Positions 42,481-53,640 of a stretch of 64,000 nucleotides of DNA are shown here, piece by piece. The number at the start of each line of letters is the position of its first letter. Within the stretch, counting starts at the first letter, position 1. The DNA comes from Brachycybe producta (Eukaryota; Arthropoda; Diplopoda; Playtdesmida; Andrognathidae), in NCBI GenBank assembly GCA_036925085.1, contig JAUPFP010000048.1, positions 637,001-701,000 on the forward strand, in the 5' to 3' direction. The position numbers were made by a program, and so were the translations under genes. Under the pieces are notes generated by a model, which worked only from the letters and a program-made list of their open reading frames with translations, had not been told where the DNA came from and made no database searches.

Positions 42481-42634
42481 TACAATAAAATGTTATGTAA
42501 CACCCTGTAAATCGTGATCCCGCCAAAACCATAGCCTGGGGGGTAAACAACTCTCAACCGTCCCTCCCTCCTCTCTGACTCACCTTTCTGACTCATGCCC
42601 CAGTGGCGGATTGATACATAAAGGACCATGGTCA

Positions 42635-42675
42635 CTTGGACCTGGTTACACCTCGCAGGTGTACACAGGTCCAAG
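42635..42675 (+). promoter_or_regulatory. U3 hairpin directly upstream of TATA box
   Basis: 19-bp arms (42635-42653 and 42657-42675, two mismatches) with a CGC loop. The right arm is AGGTGTACACAGGTCCAAG. One base separates it from TATAAAA. Repeated at 52295-52335 in the 3' LTR and conserved in the solo LTR at 20609-20649. Likely a DNA-binding palindrome or structured regulatory site. Confidence 0.8.
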
Positions 42676-42676
42676 G

Positions 42677-42683
42677 TATAAAA
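42677..42683 (+). promoter_or_regulatory. TATA box, 5' LTR
   Basis: TATAAAA within GGTATAAAAGGACC, placed in U3 about 140 nt before the polyadenylation signal. The same motif is at 52337-52343 and, diverged, in the solo LTR at 20601-20607. Confidence 0.8.
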
Positions 42684-42815
42684 GGACCATGTTCCTCTTT
42701 GTTCCTCAGTTCTTTCCTTTGCCTGTTTTTGCGATACATTCCAAATCATGGGCCTGAGGATTTACAGTTAGTATTTTACTATTCACCCTTGTATCTGTAC
42801 TTCTTACAAGGAATG

Positions 42816-42821
42816 AATAAA
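42816..42821 (+). terminator. Polyadenylation signal in LTR
   Basis: AATAAA within GAATGAATAAAAGTG. The copy at 52476-52481 in the 3' LTR would serve the genomic RNA. Conserved in the solo LTR. Confidence 0.7.
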
Positions 42822-43183
42822 AGTGTTGTAATAAGAAGTAGCGTTGTCTCTATGTTTATGTAAATAACTTCTCTTCAAAGGCCGGAGGTTTCATAGGGCA
42901 GGAGCTATACGATTCTCAGCAGCTACAACATCTTCTCTAGTCGGAATACCGATGGAGAAGATGTATATCAGCATCAACCGGAAGAGAGAGAGATGGCCGC
43001 CACTCTCCTGCATTGATTTCACCCCCATGCAGAAGAGTGACTACAATCTATCTCCATCCAGCTCTCTCTACAGCTCGGATCTTCTCTGTGCAGGTGTCAT
43101 ACTGCTCAGAGAAGAAACGAAAAGTAGAAAATGTCATCTAAAGGTTGGTAATAAAATATTGGTTGATGTCAAAAGCTCACATT

Positions 43184-43199
43184 TGGTGGAGGTGCGGGG
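43184..43199 (+). other. Primer binding site, tRNA-Ala type
   Basis: TGGTGGAGGTGCGGGG begins two bases after the LTR. Its first 12 bases are complementary to the GCACCTCCACCA 3' end of common animal tRNA-Ala species, and the match continues with one base missing. This fixes the 5' LTR boundary at 43181. Confidence 0.8.
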
Positions 43200-43299
43200 T
43201 ATAGCTCCATCTGCCTTCTCCGACCTGTAAACAGAAGCCGTCCTTTGTCCTAAGTCTCGTGATTGTGCCTCACGAGGCTTCGTCCGTCCTTTCTATGTT

Positions 43300-43650
43300 G
43301 GAGCCACGTATGGAGACCCTCGATAGCGTCAAAGTCAACCGCGTGGCGCCTGTCTGTAAAACCGCGTATGGAGACCCTCGATCACGTCAAAGTCAACCGC
43401 GCGGCGTCCTTTGTGTTGGAACCACGTGTGGAGACCCTCGATAGCGTCAAAGTCGACCACGTGGCGCCTTTGTAAAACCGCGTATGGAGGCCCTCGATCA
43501 CGTCAAAGCCAACCGCGCGGCGTCCTTTGTGTTGGAACCACGTATGGAGGCCCTCGATAGCGTCAAAGCCAACCGCGTGGCGCCTTTTTATGTTGGGATC
43601 ATGTATGGAGGCCCTCGATCACGTCAAAGCCAACCGCATGGTACCGTTTT
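43300..43650 (+). repeat. Tandem array of about 58-bp units in leader
   Basis: Six units built on ACGTATGGAGRCCCTCGAT and CGTCAAAG...CAACCGCG...GGCG. Two alternating types (GATAGCGTC and GATCACGTC) give a higher-order dimer of about 115-120 bp. The array lies about 120 nt after the primer binding site, where packaging or enhancer sequences are often found. Overlapping short frames (43259-43754) look like by-products of the repeat. Confidence 0.85.
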
Positions 43651-45627
43651 TGTGGAATCGCGAAAGAGACTTGTGGCTACACACACCACGTGTCGACCGC
43701 GCGATTCTGTGTCCTGTCCTTAGAGACACGTGGGAACGAACTTTTGTCTGCTGACCGCTTAGCACTCGGAAAGTGGACAACCGTTTGGACACACGTGTTT
43801 CCGTCCGTGTTTTTGTATTTCATGTTTCCATTACAATCACCCACTGTCACCTTCACTCTTCTTTAATTTTCAAAGTGAAACCCACACCACGTGGGCAACA
43901 CTTTAAACAAATTCTTCTTACTCTCCGAGAGGAGTTTGCAGTCTCATTATGAGATGAGCAAACAAATCTCATCTACTAATCTATCCACCTATTAATAGGC
44001 TTTTAAAGGACGTGTGTGTCTTTTAAAATGTCCTATTATCTTCACTCTTCATCTTTAATTTTCAAGCAAAATTCTCCCTAACTCTATCTCATTGTTAGGG
44101 GGCTTACAAGCTTAGAACACACTTTTCCTAGCCACGTGGGACTTTCTTGTCCCCCCTTTTCTTTGTTCTTTGTTTTTACACTTGTGTTTCCCTTGGGACC
44201 CTCTATGTCCCAAGTCATGTTCTTCAATTTCTTCATCATCATCACCTCAATGCATCATCACATGAACTTTCTCCATTGGACAACACTGAAGCCCGGCCGC
44301 CATCTTGGATCGACCGGACACTCTTCAAAAAGCGCCAACGGAGCGGTTTTTCGCTCCATGTGACTCATTGTTGTACCTTCTCTCATCTTTTTGTGTTCTC
44401 TTCTCTTCTCTTCTCTTCCAGAGGGTTGCACTCACGCGCCCCCTGGCGGAGTTCCTCTTGTTAGAGAAAACTTCTCTTTTTCTTTGAATTTTCTCTCTTT
44501 TTGTGTCTTTCTCCTGGCCACCATAAAAACGTGCCCCGGAGGAACTTTTCAATCATCAATTTTTGGACATTGCAATAAACTGAACCGGAAGCGGCCACCT
44601 CAGCGCCACCTACGGACTTCTTCCTTCTACTCAACATAGTCCCTCACTGGGCACTGACTCTGTCTTTTCATCCAGAGCCATCCAGCAGTGAGGACTCAAA
44701 ATTTCTCCAGTCTGAACATTTCTTCTGGTTCACCAAGTATTTATCTTGTTGAACACACTTCAATTTCTACACTGTTTTACTGTTTTAATAAAACTAAATT
44801 GAAACTTTTGATGTGCGGGCACCGCACCTAAGTTTTAAACTTTCAAAGTAAAACAGCTTTCTTTTCTTGCTTCTTTGGAGAGTTCAGCCATCTTGAACTT
44901 CTCCTTTGTTTGTGCATTTAAAAAGTTCAGCCATCTTGAACTTTTTGTTCTTTGTGTGTTCTTCACACACACACTCTTCATTCTTGTTTCTAAGTAAAAC
45001 TAAAAGTGCGGGCACCGCGCTCTAGCTTTACTCTTCGTATTGCTTTCCCCTTCTTCAGGCAATTGCAATACACTTTCATTTCTAATTCACTTTCCGCAGT
45101 GCAATCTTGATTGGGTGGTGTACCACGCTCGAGGTTGTATTGTACATCTGCTGTTTCTTTATTGAGGTTTTTGGAATTCTCGTAACCTCCACGTGGTCGC
45201 CAAATACCGCGTGTCGAGAGAGATCCTTCCAAAATCTGACGCTCAATAAAGAACTCACGACGCCACACCAGTTGGGAACCAAAACTCATCACACGCCCAA
45301 CTGAGAACACGATCAACCCGACACAACCATCACCACACTAACGGAGTGAACGGCCACTTCGTTATACACGTCACAAGCTTAGGTAATCTATCGTTACTCA
45401 GTGTATAAGAGTACGATAGTGTCGGTTGCCGACAAGCACTAAATTGCCAACGCGCAGTGACATCACCGACCTACAACTTCACGAACTGAACGAGTCCCAT
45501 CATACTGGAACCCGAAAGTATAGCTCAGAGTGTACTCGAGAACCCTCGGAGCTGCACACAACGACTTGGACTTCGCCGGACTCGTTCGTCACCGCACATT
45601 CACATTACACAAGCCACTTCATTAATC
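43651..45627 (+). other. Long leader with repeated hairpin motifs
   Basis: About 2 kb without a credible gene. Notable content: six CACGTG palindromes (eight in the whole leader), a 20-bp motif containing TTCAGCCATCTTGAA present twice (44881-44900, 44924-44943), and a GC-rich hairpin GTGCGGGCACCGC present twice (44813-44825, 45006-45018). A GCCGCCATCTTGG word resembling a YY1 site lies at 44296-44308. Upstream frames overlapping the gag start (such as 45426-45665) do not begin with ATG. Confidence 0.7.
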
Positions 45628-48009
45628 ATGGCTACCTCACACGACAATACGGGGTCCCTGTCTGATCACCAGGGTTCGCACGAAGATCTGTTGGAAGTAC
45701 CCGTGACTACTGATGTGACACCACCGCCGCGGCCGACTGGGGCCGAGTTTGACCACCTGTCACAACAAGTGGCTGCACTCTCGACTCGTATGTCTCAGTT
45801 CATAGACGACCGATTCACACCGAATCGACCGACTACACCACGGCGGACAACACGCACACACCGACTTCGCGACGATGACTCGGACGCCTCTTCAGCCCCC
45901 TATGTTGGCTACAGAGAGCGTCACGATCGTTACGAAAGACATTACACACCGCACACACGTCATCTACCGCGTAACCCTGACTGGCAACAACAAGGGCAGT
46001 CAGATGATCCGCGTCACAGAGATGAGCGTGCGGAAATACCGATCACGACACGTGCTGATTCTCCTCACTCGCTTGTCCGGGTTGCACGTAGCGGTCGCCG
46101 CTCGACACCCCCGGAGCAACAGCCTAGCCAAGGAGCGACACAAGGCACTTCAGTTTACGCGCCACGTTTTCCACCGCAAGGGGTAGGTCTGATGCCGGCT
46201 GGAATGTCAAACGTCCAGGATGGCATCTATCGACCAACCCCCAGAGAACCCTCCGTGGAAGAATTCAATAAGAAATACAGCGGTCGCCACCCAGCCGACT
46301 CAATCCAAAAATTCAACGGATTGACAGGTTTCCGTCCCTTCCTGGAAGAATTCGAGGAAGTAGCACACCTGTACGGTTGGAAAGACCACCACAAGGAGGA
46401 ATACATCACGGGGTGTTTCACTGGGGCCGCCCGCACGTGGCTGAGTAAACTGAGGTATGAGCTTCAGGACATTCCTTGGCCAGCACTGAGAGTACAGATG
46501 GTAGATACGTTCGGGAAGCCGAACGAACTGGCCATCTTGGAGAAAAAGTATACAGAGATGCTCCAGAAGGAAGGTGAGAGTACACAAGCTTTCATCTGGG
46601 AGTTTATGATACTCGGCGACCGAGTTTACCCGCAACTTGACGATCAGCTGCGTATAAGCCAGTTGCGCCGCGCTCTACATCCCACCATACAGAACGCCGC
46701 GCATCACGCATCTACGACGTCGTTCAAGGACTTCGCAAACGCCGTCCTCAATATGGAGGTGGTCTTGCTGTCCTTGGATAAATGGCCGACGGAACCGAAA
46801 CCCGCAGCTGATTCACAGTCGGGTAAAGGAGCATCGAAGACCGACCAGGAGCCGGCGGCAGCCGCCAGCCCTAAAGACAAAACACACCGGTCTAGGCATG
46901 ATAAAAAGCCTAGTCAGACTGCTGCCACCAATTCAAACCGACACTCTGCAGCGGACACCCAACCAGAGACCACTCGCACGTTCGACAAGAGTAAGTCGAC
47001 GTGTTATAATTGTGGCAAATTGGGGCATTTCGTCCGTGAGTGTCGGCAACCAAAGAAGAAGGTTGCAATCAAGCAGTTTGGAGAGCCGGTTACCGACTAT
47101 GACATCAAAGGAGAGGTGCCTGAAACGGATATCATCACCGAAGACGGCGTTGAGTTTGCTCTAATAAGAGTGGCGGGACAAATCCGCCGGATTCCTCTTC
47201 CAGCAGCAGACTCAGCCGCCGGAGCGCCTACTCCTGATAAACCCGACAACGACAGTTCTGACGACTCTGAGGATATACCAGTCAAGGTGCTCGACCGGGC
47301 TCCTGCACATAAATGGACCCCGGACGATCTAATCGTTTGGCAGGACACGCTCGACGTCCTTAAACAATCCGTCAAGGAGATTGGGTGCCGTGAAAATAAA
47401 ACAATAGCCATCATGGCTCCCGGAACCCAATCGCCGACGAAGGGCCACTCCTGCTGCCGAAGACTAATGACAACGGTGTATGAGCAGCTGGTAAGCAGCT
47501 GTTCACCTCAAGAAGTCGGAGACTATGATGCCAGCGACAAGAACCCGCGCATCGCCGTCACGATCAACGGAAAGAGTATACGGATGCTCGCGGACACCGG
47601 AGCTACGGGCAGCGTTATCACCATTGAACTCGCGCAGGAACACAAGTTCGAAATCGAGCCTGTGTTAATCCCACCCAACATTCAGGGTGTGGGAGGCCAA
47701 AGGATCACCGTGGTGGGGCGACTCGCCGCGACGGTCCAGCTAGGCCCCCACGCTGTGCGAGGGCACTTACTAGTGATTACCGGCCGGCACGAAGCCATCT
47801 TAGGCCGAGATCTAGGCCGGGCTCTGCACTTAGCTGTGTCCATGACAACAAACAAAGTATACGTGGAGGACGATCTCTTCGAATCCACACTCCGACAAAA
47901 ATGCATTGAAGCACACATCGGATGGGCTCTGGGAGAAACTTCCGTAGAGGCCCCTGGCAAATCTGCCAGCACCTCTAAGGAAAACCTCGAAACTCCACCC
48001 CGTAAGTGA
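45628..48009 (+). CDS. gag-pro: Gag-protease polyprotein
   Basis: 793-residue structural polyprotein expected to form the cytoplasmic virus-like particle and to cut itself. The N-terminal third (1-215) is charged and probably flexible, with a short helix near 37-60. Residues about 218-400 are a retrotransposon Gag capsid-like domain (FNGLTGFRPFLEEFEEVAHL, then TGCFTGAARTWLSKL). Residues 459-472, CYNCGKLGHFVREC, are a CX2CX4HX4C zinc knuckle. The retropepsin domain has LADTGATGSVI with catalytic Asp at 656 and the AILGRD motif at 723-728. Start is the first ATG of the open frame, with A at -3 and G at +4. Unusually, protease is in the gag frame and nothing polymerase-like follows; the frame ends just after the protease. 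The last two codons overlap a GTAAGT splice-donor-like word. Confidence 0.93.
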   Translation: MATSHDNTGSLSDHQGSHEDLLEVPVTTDVTPPPRPTGAEFDHLSQQVAALSTRMSQFIDDRFTPNRPTTPRRTTRTHRLRDDDSDASSAPYVGYRERHDRYERHYTPHTRHLPRNPDWQQQGQSDDPRHRDERAEIPITTRADSPHSLVRVARSGRRSTPPEQQPSQGATQGTSVYAPRFPPQGVGLMPAGMSNVQDGIYRPTPREPSVEEFNKKYSGRHPADSIQKFNGLTGFRPFLEEFEEVAHLYGWKDHHKEEYITGCFTGAARTWLSKLRYELQDIPWPALRVQMVDTFGKPNELAILEKKYTEMLQKEGESTQAFIWEFMILGDRVYPQLDDQLRISQLRRALHPTIQNAAHHASTTSFKDFANAVLNMEVVLLSLDKWPTEPKPAADSQSGKGASKTDQEPAAAASPKDKTHRSRHDKKPSQTAATNSNRHSAADTQPETTRTFDKSKSTCYNCGKLGHFVRECRQPKKKVAIKQFGEPVTDYDIKGEVPETDIITEDGVEFALIRVAGQIRRIPLPAADSAAGAPTPDKPDNDSSDDSEDIPVKVLDRAPAHKWTPDDLIVWQDTLDVLKQSVKEIGCRENKTIAIMAPGTQSPTKGHSCCRRLMTTVYEQLVSSCSPQEVGDYDASDKNPRIAVTINGKSIRMLADTGATGSVITIELAQEHKFEIEPVLIPPNIQGVGGQRITVVGRLAATVQLGPHAVRGHLLVITGRHEAILGRDLGRALHLAVSMTTNKVYVEDDLFESTLRQKCIEAHIGWALGETSVEAPGKSASTSKENLETPPRK

Positions 48010-48159
48010 CGACGAAAGCAACGGCCACCCACGCTGTCAAGAAACCAAACGCGACGAAAATAAAACAATAATTCACCAGTGTTTATTTCATGACTATGGA
48101 AATAAACACCAGCAACCACCAAATATCAACAATAGAAGAGCGGGAGGAATTTAAGAAAC
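48010..48159 (+). other. Inter-ORF spacer, first part
   Basis: AT-richer DNA after the gag-pro stop, ending at the 89-bp tandem duplication. No gene. Confidence 0.6.
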
Positions 48160-48337
48160 AACTGAGGACAGTTGTCAAGAGGTGGGGGAGGGGATAAAAG
48201 GAACCCCCCAACGAATAAACAACCCCACAGCATCAACAACCCCTCTAAAACTGAGGACAGTTGTCAAGAGGTGGGGGAGGGGATAAAAGGAACCCCCCAA
48301 CGAATAAACAACCCCACAGCATCAACAACCCCTCTAA
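48160..48337 (+). repeat. 89-bp exact tandem duplication
   Basis: Units 48160-48248 and 48249-48337 appear identical. Each contains a GGTGGGGGAGGGG tract followed by ATAAAAGGAACCCCCC, a TATA-like word with a GC-rich upstream element. The lack of differences means the duplication is recent. Confidence 0.9.
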
Positions 48338-49574
48338 ACACTCTCAAATAACTCCCAAAACTCTACAAAATTCACACAACTTTAATTTTTGAAACACTTC
48401 TAAACTTTTCAACATGGCCGCCAATATTTACATATTGGCAACCATTTCAAACATGCAATAAACTACACCGGAACCACGTGGCCTTCACAAACAACTGTCA
48501 ACCACGTGGTACACCTGGGAAAAACGCCGAAGGCTAGTCAAGGACGTTCAGAAGAAAAATCAAGAGCCATAAAAGGGTCAGCAAAAGAAAAACACCGTGC
48601 TCCCCTTTATTATGGACGAACGTCATTGACCATGCTGTTGACAGTAGAAGGATAGAAACTTCAAAGAGACAATTGCTCTGGGGGCCAGACCAATGCACTG
48701 GGACTTCAAAGAAAAAAAAAACGAACAACAAAAACTGCTGGCCATAAACAAATAAAAAAGGAAGAAAATCAGTTTTGAAGATTTTGTGAGAGCGGACACC
48801 TTCAATTAAAAAATAAAATTGAAGAACCTGTCACCCTCTCAATTAAGATCGAATTGTGGGACACCAACTCCTGCCCCACTCCCCCCTAAAAATAATAACA
48901 AACAGCAAGGTACATTAGTAACCTTGCTGACCTATTCTTTCCAAAAAAGGCATTAAGGAAAAGAAGGGGAGAAAGTTAATGGGCAACTTCACACCTCGGT
49001 GTGAAATAAAATAACGGCCCTTCCCCCTCGAGATTCCTTAGTCCTTTTGTTTATCTAAAAATAATAAACAGGACCGACTCTGATAAGAATTAGATCAACA
49101 CCTCTCACATCTAATATCGGTGGGACAACCCCCACCCCCAATAAATAAAGTCGTGAAGAAACCAATTAGAGTAAGGTGTCTTATTCTAAAAGGGGCCGGC
49201 CCTTCTAACTTTTAAAATTAAATAAGAAAGTGACCAAACTTGGTCAATTACCACTCGATTTGCTCTCTTCAAAGAAGCACTCGTTTTTGTTCATCTCTTT
49301 ATGCTCGATCTTCTTCAATCATCAAATCTTCAATCTACTTCTGTGCCAAGTTCCAAATTTTAATTTCGAACTTCTTCAGTTTTGTTGTCAATCCAAAGCT
49401 TGAGTACCACCTTCAAGCCTTTGAACTCACGTGCAGTGCATCAGGCCTTCAGAACTCTTTGGACCTCTTGAAATAATAACAGAGTGATCGGGGACCGATT
49501 TCTGTTATTATTTGGAAGTAACCACCAGCAGCGGGACTTTTGAAAAAGTAAGAACTTTCTAACTCTTAAGAAAT
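48338..49574 (+). other. Inter-ORF spacer, second part
   Basis: About 1.2 kb of AT-rich DNA with stops in all frames. Contains two CACGTG words (48475, 48503), another at 49428, and a CTAAC...TTAAG acceptor-like sequence just before the ORF2 ATG. No polymerase remnants were seen, so this is not simply a decayed pol. Confidence 0.65.
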
Positions 49575-51752
49575 ATGCCAGGTAGAGGCTCATGGAGAGG
49601 AGGCAGAATGATGTCTGCCTCTTCTAGTGAAGATGAGACGGAGAGTGGAACGGCGGGGACCGCTGAACCCCTCTCTCAATCTACCTGCCAGCTACAAAGG
49701 GCGGGCGCCGCCAGTGCGCCAGTAACGAGAAGAGAGTCGCCAAACATAATAGATAGGCGCCGCACCTCCTCCGAACCGGAGAATTTTCACCGGCGTGGGG
49801 AGAAGCGCCTAAAAGCAAGCTTCAAGCGACCTGCCAATGTCGGGCGCGAAGGGAAGCCTGCTGCTCCAAGCAGCATCGTCCCCTTCGACGTCACGACATC
49901 AAAACACTACTGGGAGGAGCGGGAAGACCGCATCGATATTAATACAATGGCATGGGGGGTTAACCAGGCGTTCCGCGATAGCATCGCGCCTGGTCAACCC
50001 ATTCCGGGTGGAGCTGAAGCAAGAGGGAAGCGTGGGGGAGGTGGATCTGTGCCCTCCCCCCTCGAAGACCTCCACTTGGAGATGCAGAGGGAGGCTGCCC
50101 TTCGCCAGGCAGCCAGAGATAAAAAGGAAGGGGAGGACAATCTGGCGTACCTCCGTGCGGTTTGCGCCCGCCTTGTCGAGCTGGGCTTACCGTGTACGGC
50201 GCAACTCCCGAAGGAGGAGCTCCTGCGAATCGAGGCCCGACTCCAAGAAGCCGCCCGAGTTACGTCATCGGCCACGTCATCACCTCCGTCCTCAAACTCG
50301 CCAGCAACCCTGACAACTGGCCTCTCCACATCTCCTTCTCCACCCATAACGCCACCAGAGCCTTTCCAACACTGCTCACCGGTGCCGTCAATCACTCCGC
50401 CGCCTCCTCCTCATACACCATTATCGTCACCACCAACCTCCCGATGTGCCACGCCTCCACGCAGCGAGGCCGCCACACCAACTCCGACTCCAAAGCTACC
50501 TTCCATAGTGGTGGTTCCCCAACCTGTTCGTGTTCAGGTTCCCACTGGGGCTCGCCCCAAGGAGCCTCAACAGTCCTACAGGGGCCACCACTCTCCTCGA
50601 GACTCTCTTCAACGGCCACAACCACGTCGCTCTTCGCCACGTGGTTCCCATCTTTCGCCCCGACGCCGACCCGACGGAAGAAGTCAGCAGGAACAACGTG
50701 GTTCCTCTGGACGCGGCCCTCCGCCGCGTAATAACTTCGACCCAAGGGTCAGGCAAGACCTACAGGATCACCGAGTCCAACTGGACCGCGACCATCGCTA
50801 TGAAACTCGGGGCCCTCCTACTTGGGTCCCGCGTCGCTCTCCTCCTCCGCCACCTCCGGGCCGCCCTTCTGGACAACCTACGCCTACACCTTTGATGCCG
50901 CCACCTTCCGCAGAGCGTGCCGCGTTCTTGAAAAAACAGAAGGCCATCACAAACCTTCTGCAAGACGTCATGCGACAGGGAGGTGACCCCATGGAAGCAC
51001 TGGGCCGTGCACCAGGAAGTGCCAAGCCACTGGAGGCGCTGAGCAGGAAGTCGGCATCGAAGCGACTACGTCAGCGGGCCCGCGATATGGCCCGGTCCGC
51101 CTTGCGCCATGCCAGGCCTATCACGGGCGCATCAGTTTCTTTGGAACCTGCGGCTCCAACACCAGCCCGACCAGCCGCACCGCCCACTGTACCCCATGCC
51201 GGGGCTACTCTGGGGCGGTTACCGCTGGATCATCCGTTCCGTGCAGCCACCTCCGGCGAGAGGTTGCTCAACAATCGGTGGGTCACTTGGCAGCGCGAAG
51301 TGCGCTCTGCCAACACCCTTTACGTAGGACACTTCTCTTTGGAGGAAGGGTTTCCCCGTCTGGACCTCCCTCCCCGGGAGCGATATGTCGTGGGACTCTC
51401 CCGCCTAACAAGTGTCCTCATCACCATCGTCTTCCCAAGAAGACGGATTGTTGAAACCACCAGTTTCGCCGGAGATGCCATCGATGAAGCCACGGAAGCC
51501 CTTTTGGGAGCTTTCGTCAACTCCGTCTTTAGACTGCCAGCTGGACAGACGTTCCGTACCAGTCGCCACTACATTCCGGAACCGGATCCTCGCTACCGAA
51601 TCGCCGTCTTATGGGACGCCGCTTGGGCTACACTGTACAACAAGCGGTCCTCCCGTAAGATTATCGGGGACCGGGACATCTTCAATATCTTCCACCGGGA
51701 TCTACCTGACGACCAGGGACAATGGCTGTCTGCCGCATCCAGCTACCGATGA
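49575..51752 (+). CDS. Unrecognised 725-aa protein of the LTR element
   Basis: Function unknown. Start ATG at 49575. Residues 1-12 include GRGSWRGGR, an RG-rich start; 13-100 are charged and serine-rich. Around 105-140 is a more ordered stretch (SKHYWEEREDRIDINTMAWG). About 163-235 is strongly helical and charged, possibly coiled coil. About 237-445 is a proline/serine/arginine-rich low-complexity region with freely varying third codon bases, as expected for a real coding frame. From about 447 helices resume (FLKKQKAITNLLQDVMRQGG), and 545-725 looks like a folded domain (LLNNRWVTWQREVRSANTLY ... RYRIAVLWDAAWATLYNKRS). There is no membrane segment or signal peptide, so envelope is unlikely, and no YxDD, DDE, zinc-finger or protease motif. 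Higher GC than the spacer before it. A nucleic-acid-binding or particle-associated role is only a guess. Confidence 0.85.
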   Translation: MPGRGSWRGGRMMSASSSEDETESGTAGTAEPLSQSTCQLQRAGAASAPVTRRESPNIIDRRRTSSEPENFHRRGEKRLKASFKRPANVGREGKPAAPSSIVPFDVTTSKHYWEEREDRIDINTMAWGVNQAFRDSIAPGQPIPGGAEARGKRGGGGSVPSPLEDLHLEMQREAALRQAARDKKEGEDNLAYLRAVCARLVELGLPCTAQLPKEELLRIEARLQEAARVTSSATSSPPSSNSPATLTTGLSTSPSPPITPPEPFQHCSPVPSITPPPPPHTPLSSPPTSRCATPPRSEAATPTPTPKLPSIVVVPQPVRVQVPTGARPKEPQQSYRGHHSPRDSLQRPQPRRSSPRGSHLSPRRRPDGRSQQEQRGSSGRGPPPRNNFDPRVRQDLQDHRVQLDRDHRYETRGPPTWVPRRSPPPPPPGRPSGQPTPTPLMPPPSAERAAFLKKQKAITNLLQDVMRQGGDPMEALGRAPGSAKPLEALSRKSASKRLRQRARDMARSALRHARPITGASVSLEPAAPTPARPAAPPTVPHAGATLGRLPLDHPFRAATSGERLLNNRWVTWQREVRSANTLYVGHFSLEEGFPRLDLPPRERYVVGLSRLTSVLITIVFPRRRIVETTSFAGDAIDEATEALLGAFVNSVFRLPAGQTFRTSRHYIPEPDPRYRIAVLWDAAWATLYNKRSSRKIIGDRDIFNIFHRDLPDDQGQWLSAASSYR

Positions 51753-51835
51753 GGCCAGGTCCGGCGGGATTACCCCCCCGTACGGTTCATGGACCCAGGA
51801 TCCTCCCCACCCTCCGCAGCAGGGATAGCTGCGCG

Positions 51836-52137
51836 CCACATGTACTCATGTGGTTGCCACCCATCCGGGTGGCATTATCGAAAAATTTATAAAAAAATAA
51901 AATACGTTGCAACTGTTCTTTTCTTTTTAGATTTCAATAGCGGCTCGCCACTCAGCGAGCATTAATTATCTTTGTTTTATGTTTTCAGCCTTTTCCAATT
52001 TTTAAGGGCGCTGACACTTCGGTGCCAGTGCCTTTCCATAACCACCTCTGTACACGGTAAGTCCTCAGCCACCCATGTCTCCCCGCTGCGTAACTTGAAA
52101 ACCTTCCACCCTTGGCTGGAGTACGAGGACGTACTCC
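51836..52137 (+). promoter_or_regulatory. Cluster of short hairpins before 3' LTR
   Basis: Five stems in 300 nt: CCACATG/CATGTGG (51836-51853), TGCCACCC/GGGTGGCA (51855-51874), GCTCGC/GCGAGC (51943-51960), CTGACAC-TTCG-GTGCCAG with a UUCG tetraloop and one mismatch (52011-52028), and GGAGTACG-AGGA-CGTACTCC (52118-52137). The last lies 18 nt before the LTR. Resembles a structured export, stability or packaging region. Splice-like CAG (ends 51988) and GTAAGT (52057-52062) words also occur. Confidence 0.6.
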
Positions 52138-52145
52138 AAGCAAAG

Positions 52146-52155
52146 TTGGAGGGTA
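52146..52155 (+). other. Polypurine-tract position, weak
   Basis: TTGGAGGGTA lies directly before the 3' LTR. The GGAGGG core is a short purine run where the plus-strand primer is expected, but it is weaker than a typical polypurine tract. Confidence 0.4.
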
Positions 52156-52841
52156 TGTAACACCCTGTAAATCGTGATCCCGCCAAAACCATAGCCTGGG
52201 GGGTAAACAACTCTCAACCGTCCCTCCCTCCTCTCTGACTCACCTTTCTGACTCATGCCCCAGTGGCGGATTGATACATAAAGGACCATGGTCACTTGGA
52301 CCTGGTTACACCTCGCAGGTGTACACAGGTCCAAGGTATAAAAGGACCATGTTCCTCTTTGTTCCTCAGTTCTTTCCTTTGCCTGTTTTTGCGATACATT
52401 CCAAATCATGGGCCTGAGGATTTACAGTTAGTATTTTACTATTCACCCTTGTATCTGTACTTCTTACAAGGAATGAATAAAAGTGTTGTAATAAGAAGTA
52501 GCGTTGTCTCTATGTTTATGTAAATAACTTCTCTTCAAAGGCCGGAGGTTTCATAGGGCAGGAGCTATACGATTCTCAGCAGCTACAACATCTTCTCTAG
52601 TCGGAATACCGATGGAGAAGATGTATATCAGCATCAACCGGAAGAGAGAGAGATGGCCGCCACTCTCCTGCATTGATTTCACCCCCATGCAGAAGAGTGA
52701 CTACAATCTATCTCCATCCAGCTCTCTCTACAGCTCGGATCTTCTCTGTGCAGGTGTCATACTGCTCAGAGAAGAAACGAAAAGTAGAAAATGTCATCTA
52801 AAGGTTGGTAATAAAATATTGGTTGATGTCAAAAGCTCACA
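52156..52841 (+). repeat. 3' LTR
   Basis: 686 bp, identical in all compared positions to 42496-43181. Followed by GTTA (52842-52845), the target duplication. It supplies the polyadenylation signal at 52476-52481 for the element's transcript. Confidence 0.95.
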
Positions 52842-52845
52842 GTTA

Positions 52846-53160
52846 TCAGACCTAAAATTATGTAAACATTCTGACGATGAAACTGGAAAAAAATTGGAAT
52901 TTTAGAGCGATTCGATATATAAAATTTCGATTTTTTAAAAACGTAATTTTTTTTAAAAAAAATCTCGATTCTTCCTCTTTCCAGTTGTAGCATTCAAAAG
53001 GGGGACTTTTCTATTATTTAGGAGGGGTGTTCCTTTCTATGTTCTGTTATTATTTTGTATATTAGAATACATGTGACGTATTTTCATTTTAAACCCATAT
53101 TATTACAAATGAATTGTAACTATGTCATGTACATGAATGTTTATCTATATACACATGCAC
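52846..53160 (+). other. Right part of hAT element, AT-rich
   Basis: Non-coding AT-rich DNA between the LTR and the minisatellite. A palindromic stretch of T and A runs lies at about 52930-52970. Nothing else recognised. Confidence 0.5.
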
Positions 53161-53490
53161 ACACGTGTGTAAATGTCCATGCACATGCGCACAAGTGTGT
53201 ACATGTGCGTGCGCATGCGCACAAGTGTGTACATGTGCGCGCGCATGCGCACAAGTGTGTACATGTGCGCGCGCATGCGCACAAGTGTGTACATGTGCGC
53301 GCGCATGCGCACAAGTGTGTACATGTGCGCGCGCATGCGCACACGTGTGTAAGTGTGCGTACGCATGTGCACACGTGTGTAAGTGTGCGTACGCATGTGC
53401 ACACGTGTGTAAGTGTGCGTACGCATGTGCACACGTGTGGAAGTGTGTATATGCATGTGCGCACATGTGTTCATGTGCGTACTCATGCGC
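53161..53490 (+). repeat. 30-bp minisatellite, 11 units, alternating purine-pyrimidine
   Basis: Eleven consecutive 30-bp units. Five central units follow ACAAGTGTGTACATGTGCGN + GCGCATGCGC; three later ones follow ACACGTGTGTAAGTGTGCGT + ACGCATGTGC; others are variants. Almost strictly alternating purine-pyrimidine with nested palindromes (GCATGC, TGTACA, ACGTGT), so prone to Z-DNA and cruciforms. Because 30 is a multiple of three and units lack stops, long frames are open on both strands; these are probably not genes. Confidence 0.95.
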
Positions 53491-53640
53491 ACACGTGCAA
53501 CAATGAAAAAAAGTTGGTTATTTGATATATGAAAGCATATATGAAAGCAATGGAGGTCTATAGGGTTCCTTGAATCCCTTGTTTTTACTAAAATCACAAC
53601 ACAAATGAAGGTCTAAAAATCACACAAATTACCAACCCTA
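53491..53640 (+). repeat. hAT right-end sequence
   Basis: Contains TTTGATATATGAAAG and GCAATGGAGGTCTATAGG (also at 34650-34700), then AATCACACAAATTACC and CCCTA, the right terminal repeat. Confidence 0.65.

What the first reader, a model, noticed from the sequence alone, without database searches (positions are those of the whole stretch)
42496..52841. Freshly inserted LTR retrotransposon with gag-protease and a second ORF but no polymerase
Both LTRs look identical, the 4-bp duplication is intact, and both ORFs are open over 2.4 and 2.2 kb. Yet no frame on either strand carries reverse transcriptase, RNase H or integrase. Known non-autonomous LTR elements usually lose all coding capacity or keep gag alone. 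Keeping gag fused to protease while carrying a large additional intact gene suggests a stable two-component system: this element may provide particle protein and a partner polymerase, or parasitise the partner while delivering ORF2.
Basis: partly seen in the sequence, partly recalled or inferred. Interest (0 to 1): 0.88.

Follow-up and report, generated by a model that had tools for sequence, protein, structure and literature searches.

The report
Gag half of two-part retrotransposon
The element is a freshly inserted LTR retrotransposon that carries the particle genes but no polymerase, and the same genome holds about a hundred partner elements with the same ends that carry the polymerase but seem to lack the capsid gene, so this jumping gene appears to be split into two parts that need each other.

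Summary
In detail: 686-bp LTRs with no difference, TSD GTTA, gag-protease ORF1 (793 aa), ORF2 (725 aa), and no RT, RNase H or integrase in 107 stop-to-stop segments. It is not a one-off deletion: a nucleocapsid tag counts 298 sites genome-wide, all 62 scored ORF2 copies (of 2,893 candidates) are open, and gag and ORF2 show purifying selection. In the same genome I found a partner, here called A-pol: 125 sites for an RT tag, 72 of 112 scored RT places in frames of 1,570-1,597 aa (protease-RT-RNase H-integrase), no Gag capsid or zinc knuckle in the copies read, and a short ORF2. Window LTR plus PBS is 99% identical to that of at least 8 A-pol copies. None of the 112 scored RT places has one of the 150 listed gag places upstream. 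So the window element is most likely the Gag half of a two-part Ty3/Gypsy retrotransposon whose halves lost complementary parts. A relative (family B) shows the complete layout, with ORF2 as 3' module. Pol-less elements with Gag and a further ORF are known in plants; I found no description of a complementary LTR-retrotransposon pair without a complete master. Mutual dependence, expression and ORF2 function are inferred, not shown.

The parts
42492..42495 (.). target-site duplication GTTA, left copy
   Evidence: sequence; 9 of 9 other copies with both LTRs read also have 4-bp repeats, by eye
42496..43181 (+). 5' LTR (686 bp, TGTAACACC...CTCACA)
   Evidence: identical to the 3' LTR; 99-100% in the 40 scored genome hits, at least 8 of which head A-pol elements
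43184..43199 (+). primer binding site TGGTGGAGGTGCGGGG, 2 nt after the LTR
   Evidence: position; its reverse complement followed within 0-4 bases by TG: 366 forward + 651 reverse matches genome-wide (one site can match twice) against 0 for the reversed control
43182..45627 (+). 2.4-kb leader; 43296-43641 holds a 116/60-bp tandem repeat; 43500-44500 is 99% identical in A-gag copies and in 9 A-pol copies
45628..48009 (+). ORF1, Gag-protease, 793 aa (gag domain aa 260-351, CCHC aa 458-474, protease aa 637-731)
   Evidence: Pfam; gag core without stop in 148 of 150 scored copies of 2,312 candidates; pooled dN/dS 0.083 over the first 566 codons
47328..48248 (+). segment with the protease, missing in the protease-minus sub-form of the family
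   Evidence: 4 of 10 compared copies; 629-aa frames like theirs in 38 of 149 transcribed rows (of 150)
48010..49574 (+). non-coding spacer where the complete relative has RT-RNase H-integrase; 89-bp exact tandem duplication at 48160-48337
   Evidence: colinear pieces 73-93% identical in an old copy
49575..51752 (+). ORF2, 725 aa, pI 10.8, Pro/Arg-rich, no transmembrane-like stretch, no N-X-S/T site; conserved parts about aa 43-236 and 554-718
52138..52155 (+). polypurine tract region before the 3' LTR (AAGCAAAGTTGGAGGGTA)
   Evidence: identical in the one A-pol copy read there
52156..52841 (+). 3' LTR (686 bp)
52842..52845 (.). target-site duplication GTTA, right copy
   Evidence: sequence

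Best explanation
The window element (A-gag) is the particle-protein half of a two-part Ty3/Gypsy retrotransposon. It makes Gag (and in most copies protease) and ORF2. A second, apparently also young family (A-pol) with the same LTR, PBS, PPT and 5' leader makes protease, RT, RNase H and integrase and a short ORF2, but no capsid or nucleocapsid. RNAs of both are packed into particles built from A-gag's Gag, reverse-transcribed and integrated by A-pol's enzymes. Shown: anatomy, shared cis signals, tag counts, open frames, purifying selection on gag and ORF2, no listed place with both halves. Inferred: co-packaging, mutual dependence, and ORF2 acting on the element RNA (for example as a nuclear export factor like CERV of Cer1).
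For: Partner: the RT protein of one A-pol copy gives 112 scored places of 3,156 candidates, 103 without a stop, 72 in frames of 1,570-1,597 aa. Integrase places fall in the same frames. Four near-identical copies (L093-L096, 3.8 kb each) have protease, RT and RNase H but no gag domain or zinc knuckle; in L094, whose matches were printed, ORF1 matches only from aa 535. A short ORF2 accompanies A-pol, mostly in frames of 365/371 or 416 aa. Shared ends: window LTR+PBS (750 bp) is 99-100% identical in all 40 scored hits of 2,197 candidates, at least 8 of which lie 5.27-5.31 kb before an A-pol RT; LTR ends, PBS and PPT are identical in the one A-pol copy read end to end in pieces. Mutual exclusion: 0 of 112 RT places have one of the 150 listed gag places 0-8 kb upstream on the same strand; of 40 leader hits 27 have gag only, 9 RT only, 0 both, 4 neither in the typed lists. 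Of those 4, two are A-gag, one has ORF2, and C48:1178706 is unassigned. Counts with up to 2 mismatches: 298 A-gag and 125 A-pol tags, control 0. Selection: 15 of 57 variable codons change the amino acid in the first 566 codons of ORF1, 20 of 49 in ORF2, below neutral expectation. Ancestral layout: an old family B copy has gag-PR-RT-RH-IN-ORF2.
Against: No expression, particle or mobilisation data. Gag and RT lists were capped, and the gag list held only places almost identical to the window, so a rare complete A element or one with a diverged Gag could be missed. One RT place (C11:3206681) lies in a listed frame of 5,498 aa that I could not read; its protease-RT spacing is the usual 1,377 bases. 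Family B has 10 places with integrase in an open 2,287-aa frame and could supply Gag and pol to both halves. A-pol selection was tested on four copies only and is uneven: syn 2 / non 4 and syn 1 / non 0 for the two closest pairs, syn 9-10 / non 3-5 for the other four. LTR pairs of near-identical A-pol copies were not compared; the one A-pol copy read end to end is old (LTRs 95.8%, YLDN in RT).
Confidence: 0.7

Rival explanations
1. Family B, a gag-pro-pol-ORF2 Gypsy element in the same genome, is the true master; A-gag and A-pol are both satellites of it.
For: An old B copy has the complete layout; 10 places hold integrase in an open 2,287-aa frame at 78% identity to A-pol's; the PBS is identical; an open RT stretch was read in one B copy.
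Against: B LTRs differ in sequence and ends (TGTGACACC...GTTACA against TGTAACACC...CTCACA) and B's PPT differs. A-gag and A-pol coding regions stay open in large numbers, which satellites of B would not need.
Confidence: 0.13
2. A complete A element exists (in the lists that were cut off, in assembly gaps, or polymorphic) and drives both halves.
For: Lists were capped: 112 of 3,156 RT and 150 of 2,312 gag candidates scored; one RT place lies in an unread 5,498-aa frame.
Against: The integrase search ran past the A family into family B: 123 rows at 88% identity or more come before the first B row (by my transcription), none in a frame above 1,597 aa; 0 of 112 RT places have a listed gag place upstream.
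Confidence: 0.1
3. A-gag is only a parasite: it keeps ORF1 and ORF2 by chance or recent origin and is mobilised by A-pol with Gag from elsewhere.
For: 38 of 149 transcribed gag rows have the 629-aa frame that lacks the protease, so part of ORF1 is dispensable in cis.
Against: Purifying selection on gag and ORF2, 62 of 62 scored ORF2 copies open, and the same layout in two copies at 66-79% nucleotide identity.
Confidence: 0.05

Closest known systems
Athila pol-less families, Arabidopsis (PMC2410132, passages read)
   Same: LTRs plus a Gag ORF and an ORF in the env position, no pol, whole families, purifying selection, mobilisation in trans inferred
   Different: the pol-bearing Athilas also have gag; here the pol-bearing copies read lack the Gag domain and zinc knuckle and share 99% identical LTRs
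RLG_Sabrina_SA / RLG_Wilma and RLG_Quinta / RLG_Cereba, wheat (PMC9744471, PMC11302176, passages read)
   Same: Gag-Pro without RT/IN, or Gag plus a domain of unknown function; same PBS and LTR ends as the partner (Quinta/Cereba)
   Different: the partner is a complete autonomous element; here no complete element with these LTRs was seen
Endogenous pararetroviruses ePVCVL / ePVCVL2, grasses (PMC5491270, passages read)
   Same: two functionally complementary non-autonomous genomes that share and homogenise non-coding regulatory sequence
   Different: pararetroviruses, not LTR retrotransposons; inferred from endogenous fossils, whereas the window family is young with open frames
BARE-2 / BARE-1, barley (only as cited in a passage of PMC9744471)
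   Same: an element with disrupted gag and intact other genes that presumably uses another element's Gag
   Different: BARE-1, the Gag source, is itself complete (recalled, not from a call)
Cer1 of Caenorhabditis elegans and its CERV protein (PMC10309623, passages read)
   Same: Gypsy-type element without a stop between gag and pol and with a non-envelope 3' ORF; CERV is needed to export the genomic RNA from the nucleus
   Different: complete element; similarity of ORF2 to CERV was not tested

Membership tests
LTR retrotransposon | two LTRs, TG...CA, TSD, PBS, PPT | tested here: met
Ty3/Gypsy lineage | Gypsy-type Gag and protease; in pol-bearing kin the order PR-RT-RH-IN | tested here: met
   Retrotrans_gag, CCHC, RVP; order in L032 and in L045/L042. 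No RT tree was built.
Autonomous LTR retrotransposon | RT, RNase H and integrase in the element | tested here: not met
   107 segments
Pol-less coding family (Athila type) | many copies, ORFs under purifying selection, no pol | tested here: met
Partner pair by the criteria used for Quinta/Cereba | same PBS, LTR ends and PPT in the partner | tested here: met
   LTR+PBS in at least 8 A-pol copies; ends and PPT in one copy
Bipartite complementary pair | partner lacks what this element has (Gag CA-NC) | tested here: met
   four near-identical copies and one old copy; list comparison
Bipartite complementary pair | no complete master element with these LTRs | tested here: inconclusive
   none seen; searches were capped and one 5,498-aa frame was not read
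Bipartite complementary pair | co-packaging and mutual dependence | not testable with these tools
   needs RNA, particle or insertion data
Retrovirus-like element with env | ORF2 with transmembrane segment and glycosylation sites | tested here: not met
   best 19-residue hydropathy 1.30, no N-X-S/T

The most novel reading that the evidence does not exclude
An obligate bipartite LTR retrotransposon: two co-active genomes with complementary deletions (pol lost in one, Gag CA-NC lost in the other), both keeping the ORF2 C-terminal domain, with shared LTR and leader exchanged between them, and no complete master element; a selfish element that has become a multipartite genome like that of multipartite viruses.
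Probability: 0.55. Interest if true: 0.92.

Novelty: new variant of a known kind. Interest (0 to 1): 0.82.

Why it matters
If right, this is a natural two-part genome in an LTR retrotransposon, young enough to study in action. It makes questions about cooperation between selfish elements testable: how two RNAs are co-packaged, why neither half takes over, and whether a split keeps transposition density-dependent. The ORF2 C-terminal domain, kept in both halves, points to a further function that has no recognised relative.

Tried and rejected
Rejected: ORF2 as envelope; a pol remnant in the spacer (no match of spacer or leader to six other loci at E<0.1; the spacer matches an old copy of the same family and no pol); a dead single deletion derivative. 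Structure prediction of the ORF2 C-terminal part gave mean pLDDT 38.7, so no fold search was made. A profile of three ORF2 homologues against the PDB gave one chance-level hit, E 0.37. Protein-database searches found nothing for ORF2 and one weak hit for ORF1. Host identity was not established; no tRNA or Rfam match lies in the window. Papers: searches were searched for pol-less, split or complementary LTR retrotransposons; no listing named a complementary LTR-retrotransposon pair. The pararetrovirus and Athila papers were found this way.

Results against the reading, or dropped: I transcribed 149 of 150 frame lengths. In one search four of 40 leaders matched neither list (three are A-gag by other calls, one is unassigned). 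Of 20 sites sampled, three (L051, L055, L062) matched nothing; of 18, two (L079, L086) matched nothing and L087 matched only the 3' part of the element. L072, downstream of a gag copy at 88.9%, matched nothing, so that copy may be truncated. One ORF2 copy (L014) was left out of the selection count for its length, and the ORF1 count covers only the first 566 codons. One short ORF2 place lies in a listed frame of 2,113 aa (C47:355389), not explained.
Full report
Observation. ORF1 is Gag, one zinc knuckle and a retroviral protease; ORF2 matches no Pfam family, PDB chain or database protein. A scan of 107 stop-to-stop segments of 45 aa or more on both strands found no RT, RNase H or integrase.

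It is a family, not an accident. The piece 43500-44500 had 723 candidates in the 295-Mb genome; the 40 scored were all at least 99% identical. Ten copies fetched in halves keep ORF2 open (10 of 10) and ORF1 open as far as read (10 of 10; in 6 the last 50 or so residues were not checked). 9 of 10 had two LTRs to compare, with 0 mismatches in 9 of 9 and 4-bp repeats in all 9. ORF2 protein: 62 scored of 2,893 candidates, all 62 full length without a stop. Gag core: 150 scored of 2,312, 148 without a stop. Two sub-forms exist: 91 of 149 transcribed rows have an 839-aa frame, 38 a 629-aa frame like that of the 4 copies read that lost the protease. A nucleocapsid tag, with up to 2 mismatches, counts 298 sites, control 0.

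Selection. In 11 copies, 15 of 57 variable codons change the amino acid in the first 566 codons of ORF1; in 12 copies, 20 of 49 in ORF2 (one copy of other length left out). Pooled dN/dS against the window copy is 0.083 and 0.19. Against a neutral share of 0.6-0.76 the binomial probabilities are at most 2.6e-7 for gag and 0.005 for ORF2. The copies are not independent, so these are guides.

Where ORF2 comes from. Many families share the PBS. Sampling them gave three relatives. Family C (L035, L037; LTRs identical over 583 bp) has gag, protease, integrase core and ORF2, but no RT was matched. Family B exists as a deletion form (L043, L039, L044; LTRs identical over 560 bp) with gag, protease and ORF2 and no RT or integrase matched; its frame is open through the three contiguous pieces. 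It also exists as a complete form: an old, frameshifted copy (L045, L042, L046; LTRs 86.6%) has gag-PR-RT-RH-IN and an ORF2 homologue, and 10 places hold integrase in an open 2,287-aa frame, not read whole. So ORF2 is the 3' module of a complete Gypsy lineage. Loss of RT probably happened separately in A, B and C: the two B forms share 98.8% of the protease residues compared, and C kept integrase (inference). Family A's pol-less layout is old: two copies at 66-79% nucleotide identity (L038/L047, L048/L073) share the protease-to-ORF2 arrangement.

The partner. One PBS site (C1:14255046, minus strand) proved to carry window-type LTRs (88-90% identical), the same LTR ends, PBS and PPT, and protease, RT, RNase H, integrase and a short ORF2 in several open pieces, but no match to Gag capsid and no zinc knuckle before the protease. 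Its RT protein gave 112 scored places of 3,156 candidates, 103 without a stop and 72 in frames of 1,570-1,597 aa; its integrase falls in the same frames. An RT tag, with up to 2 mismatches, counts 125 sites, control 0. Four near-identical copies (L093-L096) were read over 3.8 kb each: end of leader, a stretch that by eye resembles the Gag N-terminus, then protease, RT and RNase H. Pfam finds no gag or zinc knuckle in the four; in L094 ORF1 matches only from aa 535. A-pol also carries a short ORF2, mostly in frames of 365/371 or 416 aa, with the C-terminal domain.

Same ends, two bodies. The window LTR plus PBS (750 bp): the 40 scored of 2,197 candidates are 99-100% identical, and at least 8 lie 5.27-5.31 kb before an A-pol RT. 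Of the 40 leader hits at 99%, 27 have gag, 9 have RT, none both, 4 neither in the typed lists. None of 112 RT places has one of the 150 listed gag places 0-8 kb upstream on its strand. In the A-pol copy at C1:15563666 the late leader is only about 81% identical to the window (44918-45433, L093) while the LTR is 99%: the pattern expected if co-packaged RNAs swap their 5' ends during reverse transcription (inference).

How it most likely works. A-gag RNA is translated to Gag and, by an unknown start or splice, ORF2. A-pol supplies protease, RT and integrase. Both RNAs, with the same leader and PBS, enter particles of A-gag Gag, are copied by A-pol RT and are inserted by A-pol integrase, which sees the same LTR ends. 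A-gag copies without protease fit this, since A-pol has one. ORF2 is basic (pI 10.8) without a membrane segment; its 3' position matches that of Cer1 CERV, which is needed to export genomic RNA (PMC10309623, passages). I take an RNA-export or RNA-binding role as most likely, at about 0.4; similarity to CERV was not tested.

Known context. A pair of complementary non-autonomous genomes with shared regulatory sequence has been proposed for grass pararetroviruses (PMC5491270). I found no report of such a pair in LTR retrotransposons without a complete master (one open-access library only).

Limits. Searches were capped, and one RT place in a 5,498-aa frame (C11:3206681) was not read, so the absence of a complete A element is not proven. 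Family B might help. LTR ages of near-identical A-pol copies were not measured. Nothing here shows transcription, packaging or movement. That the PBS fits the 3' end of an alanine tRNA is recalled and untested.

Noticed in passing
G000 C1:12012257-12022455 (L035, L037): Family C: gag, protease, integrase core and ORF2 homologue but no RT or RNase H matched, with identical LTRs; whether this is a family-wide state was not tested.
   Followed up: partly
G000 C1 about 7711418-7720910 (L043, L039, L044): Family B deletion form: gag, protease, a long Lys/Ser/Thr-rich stretch and ORF2 homologue, one frame open through the three contiguous pieces (about 2,100 aa), no RT or integrase matched.
   Followed up: partly
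window 47328-48248: A protease-minus sub-form of the window family is common (629-aa frames), so one branch of the family does without its own protease.
   Followed up: partly
window 43296-43641: Tandem repeat of 60/116 bp in the leader, a possible packaging or regulatory signal.
   Followed up: no
window 48160-48337: Exact 89-bp tandem duplication in the spacer between ORF1 and ORF2.
   Followed up: no
window 53154-53497: 30-bp satellite-like array (CATGCGCACAAGTGTGTA... units) just right of the element.
   Followed up: no
G000 C1 (L032, L033, L034): Other elements with different LTR ends use the same PBS, so one tRNA seems to prime several Gypsy families here.
   Followed up: partly
G000 C11:3206681: An A-pol RT lies in a listed open frame of 5,498 aa; perhaps a run of N, not read.
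   Followed up: no
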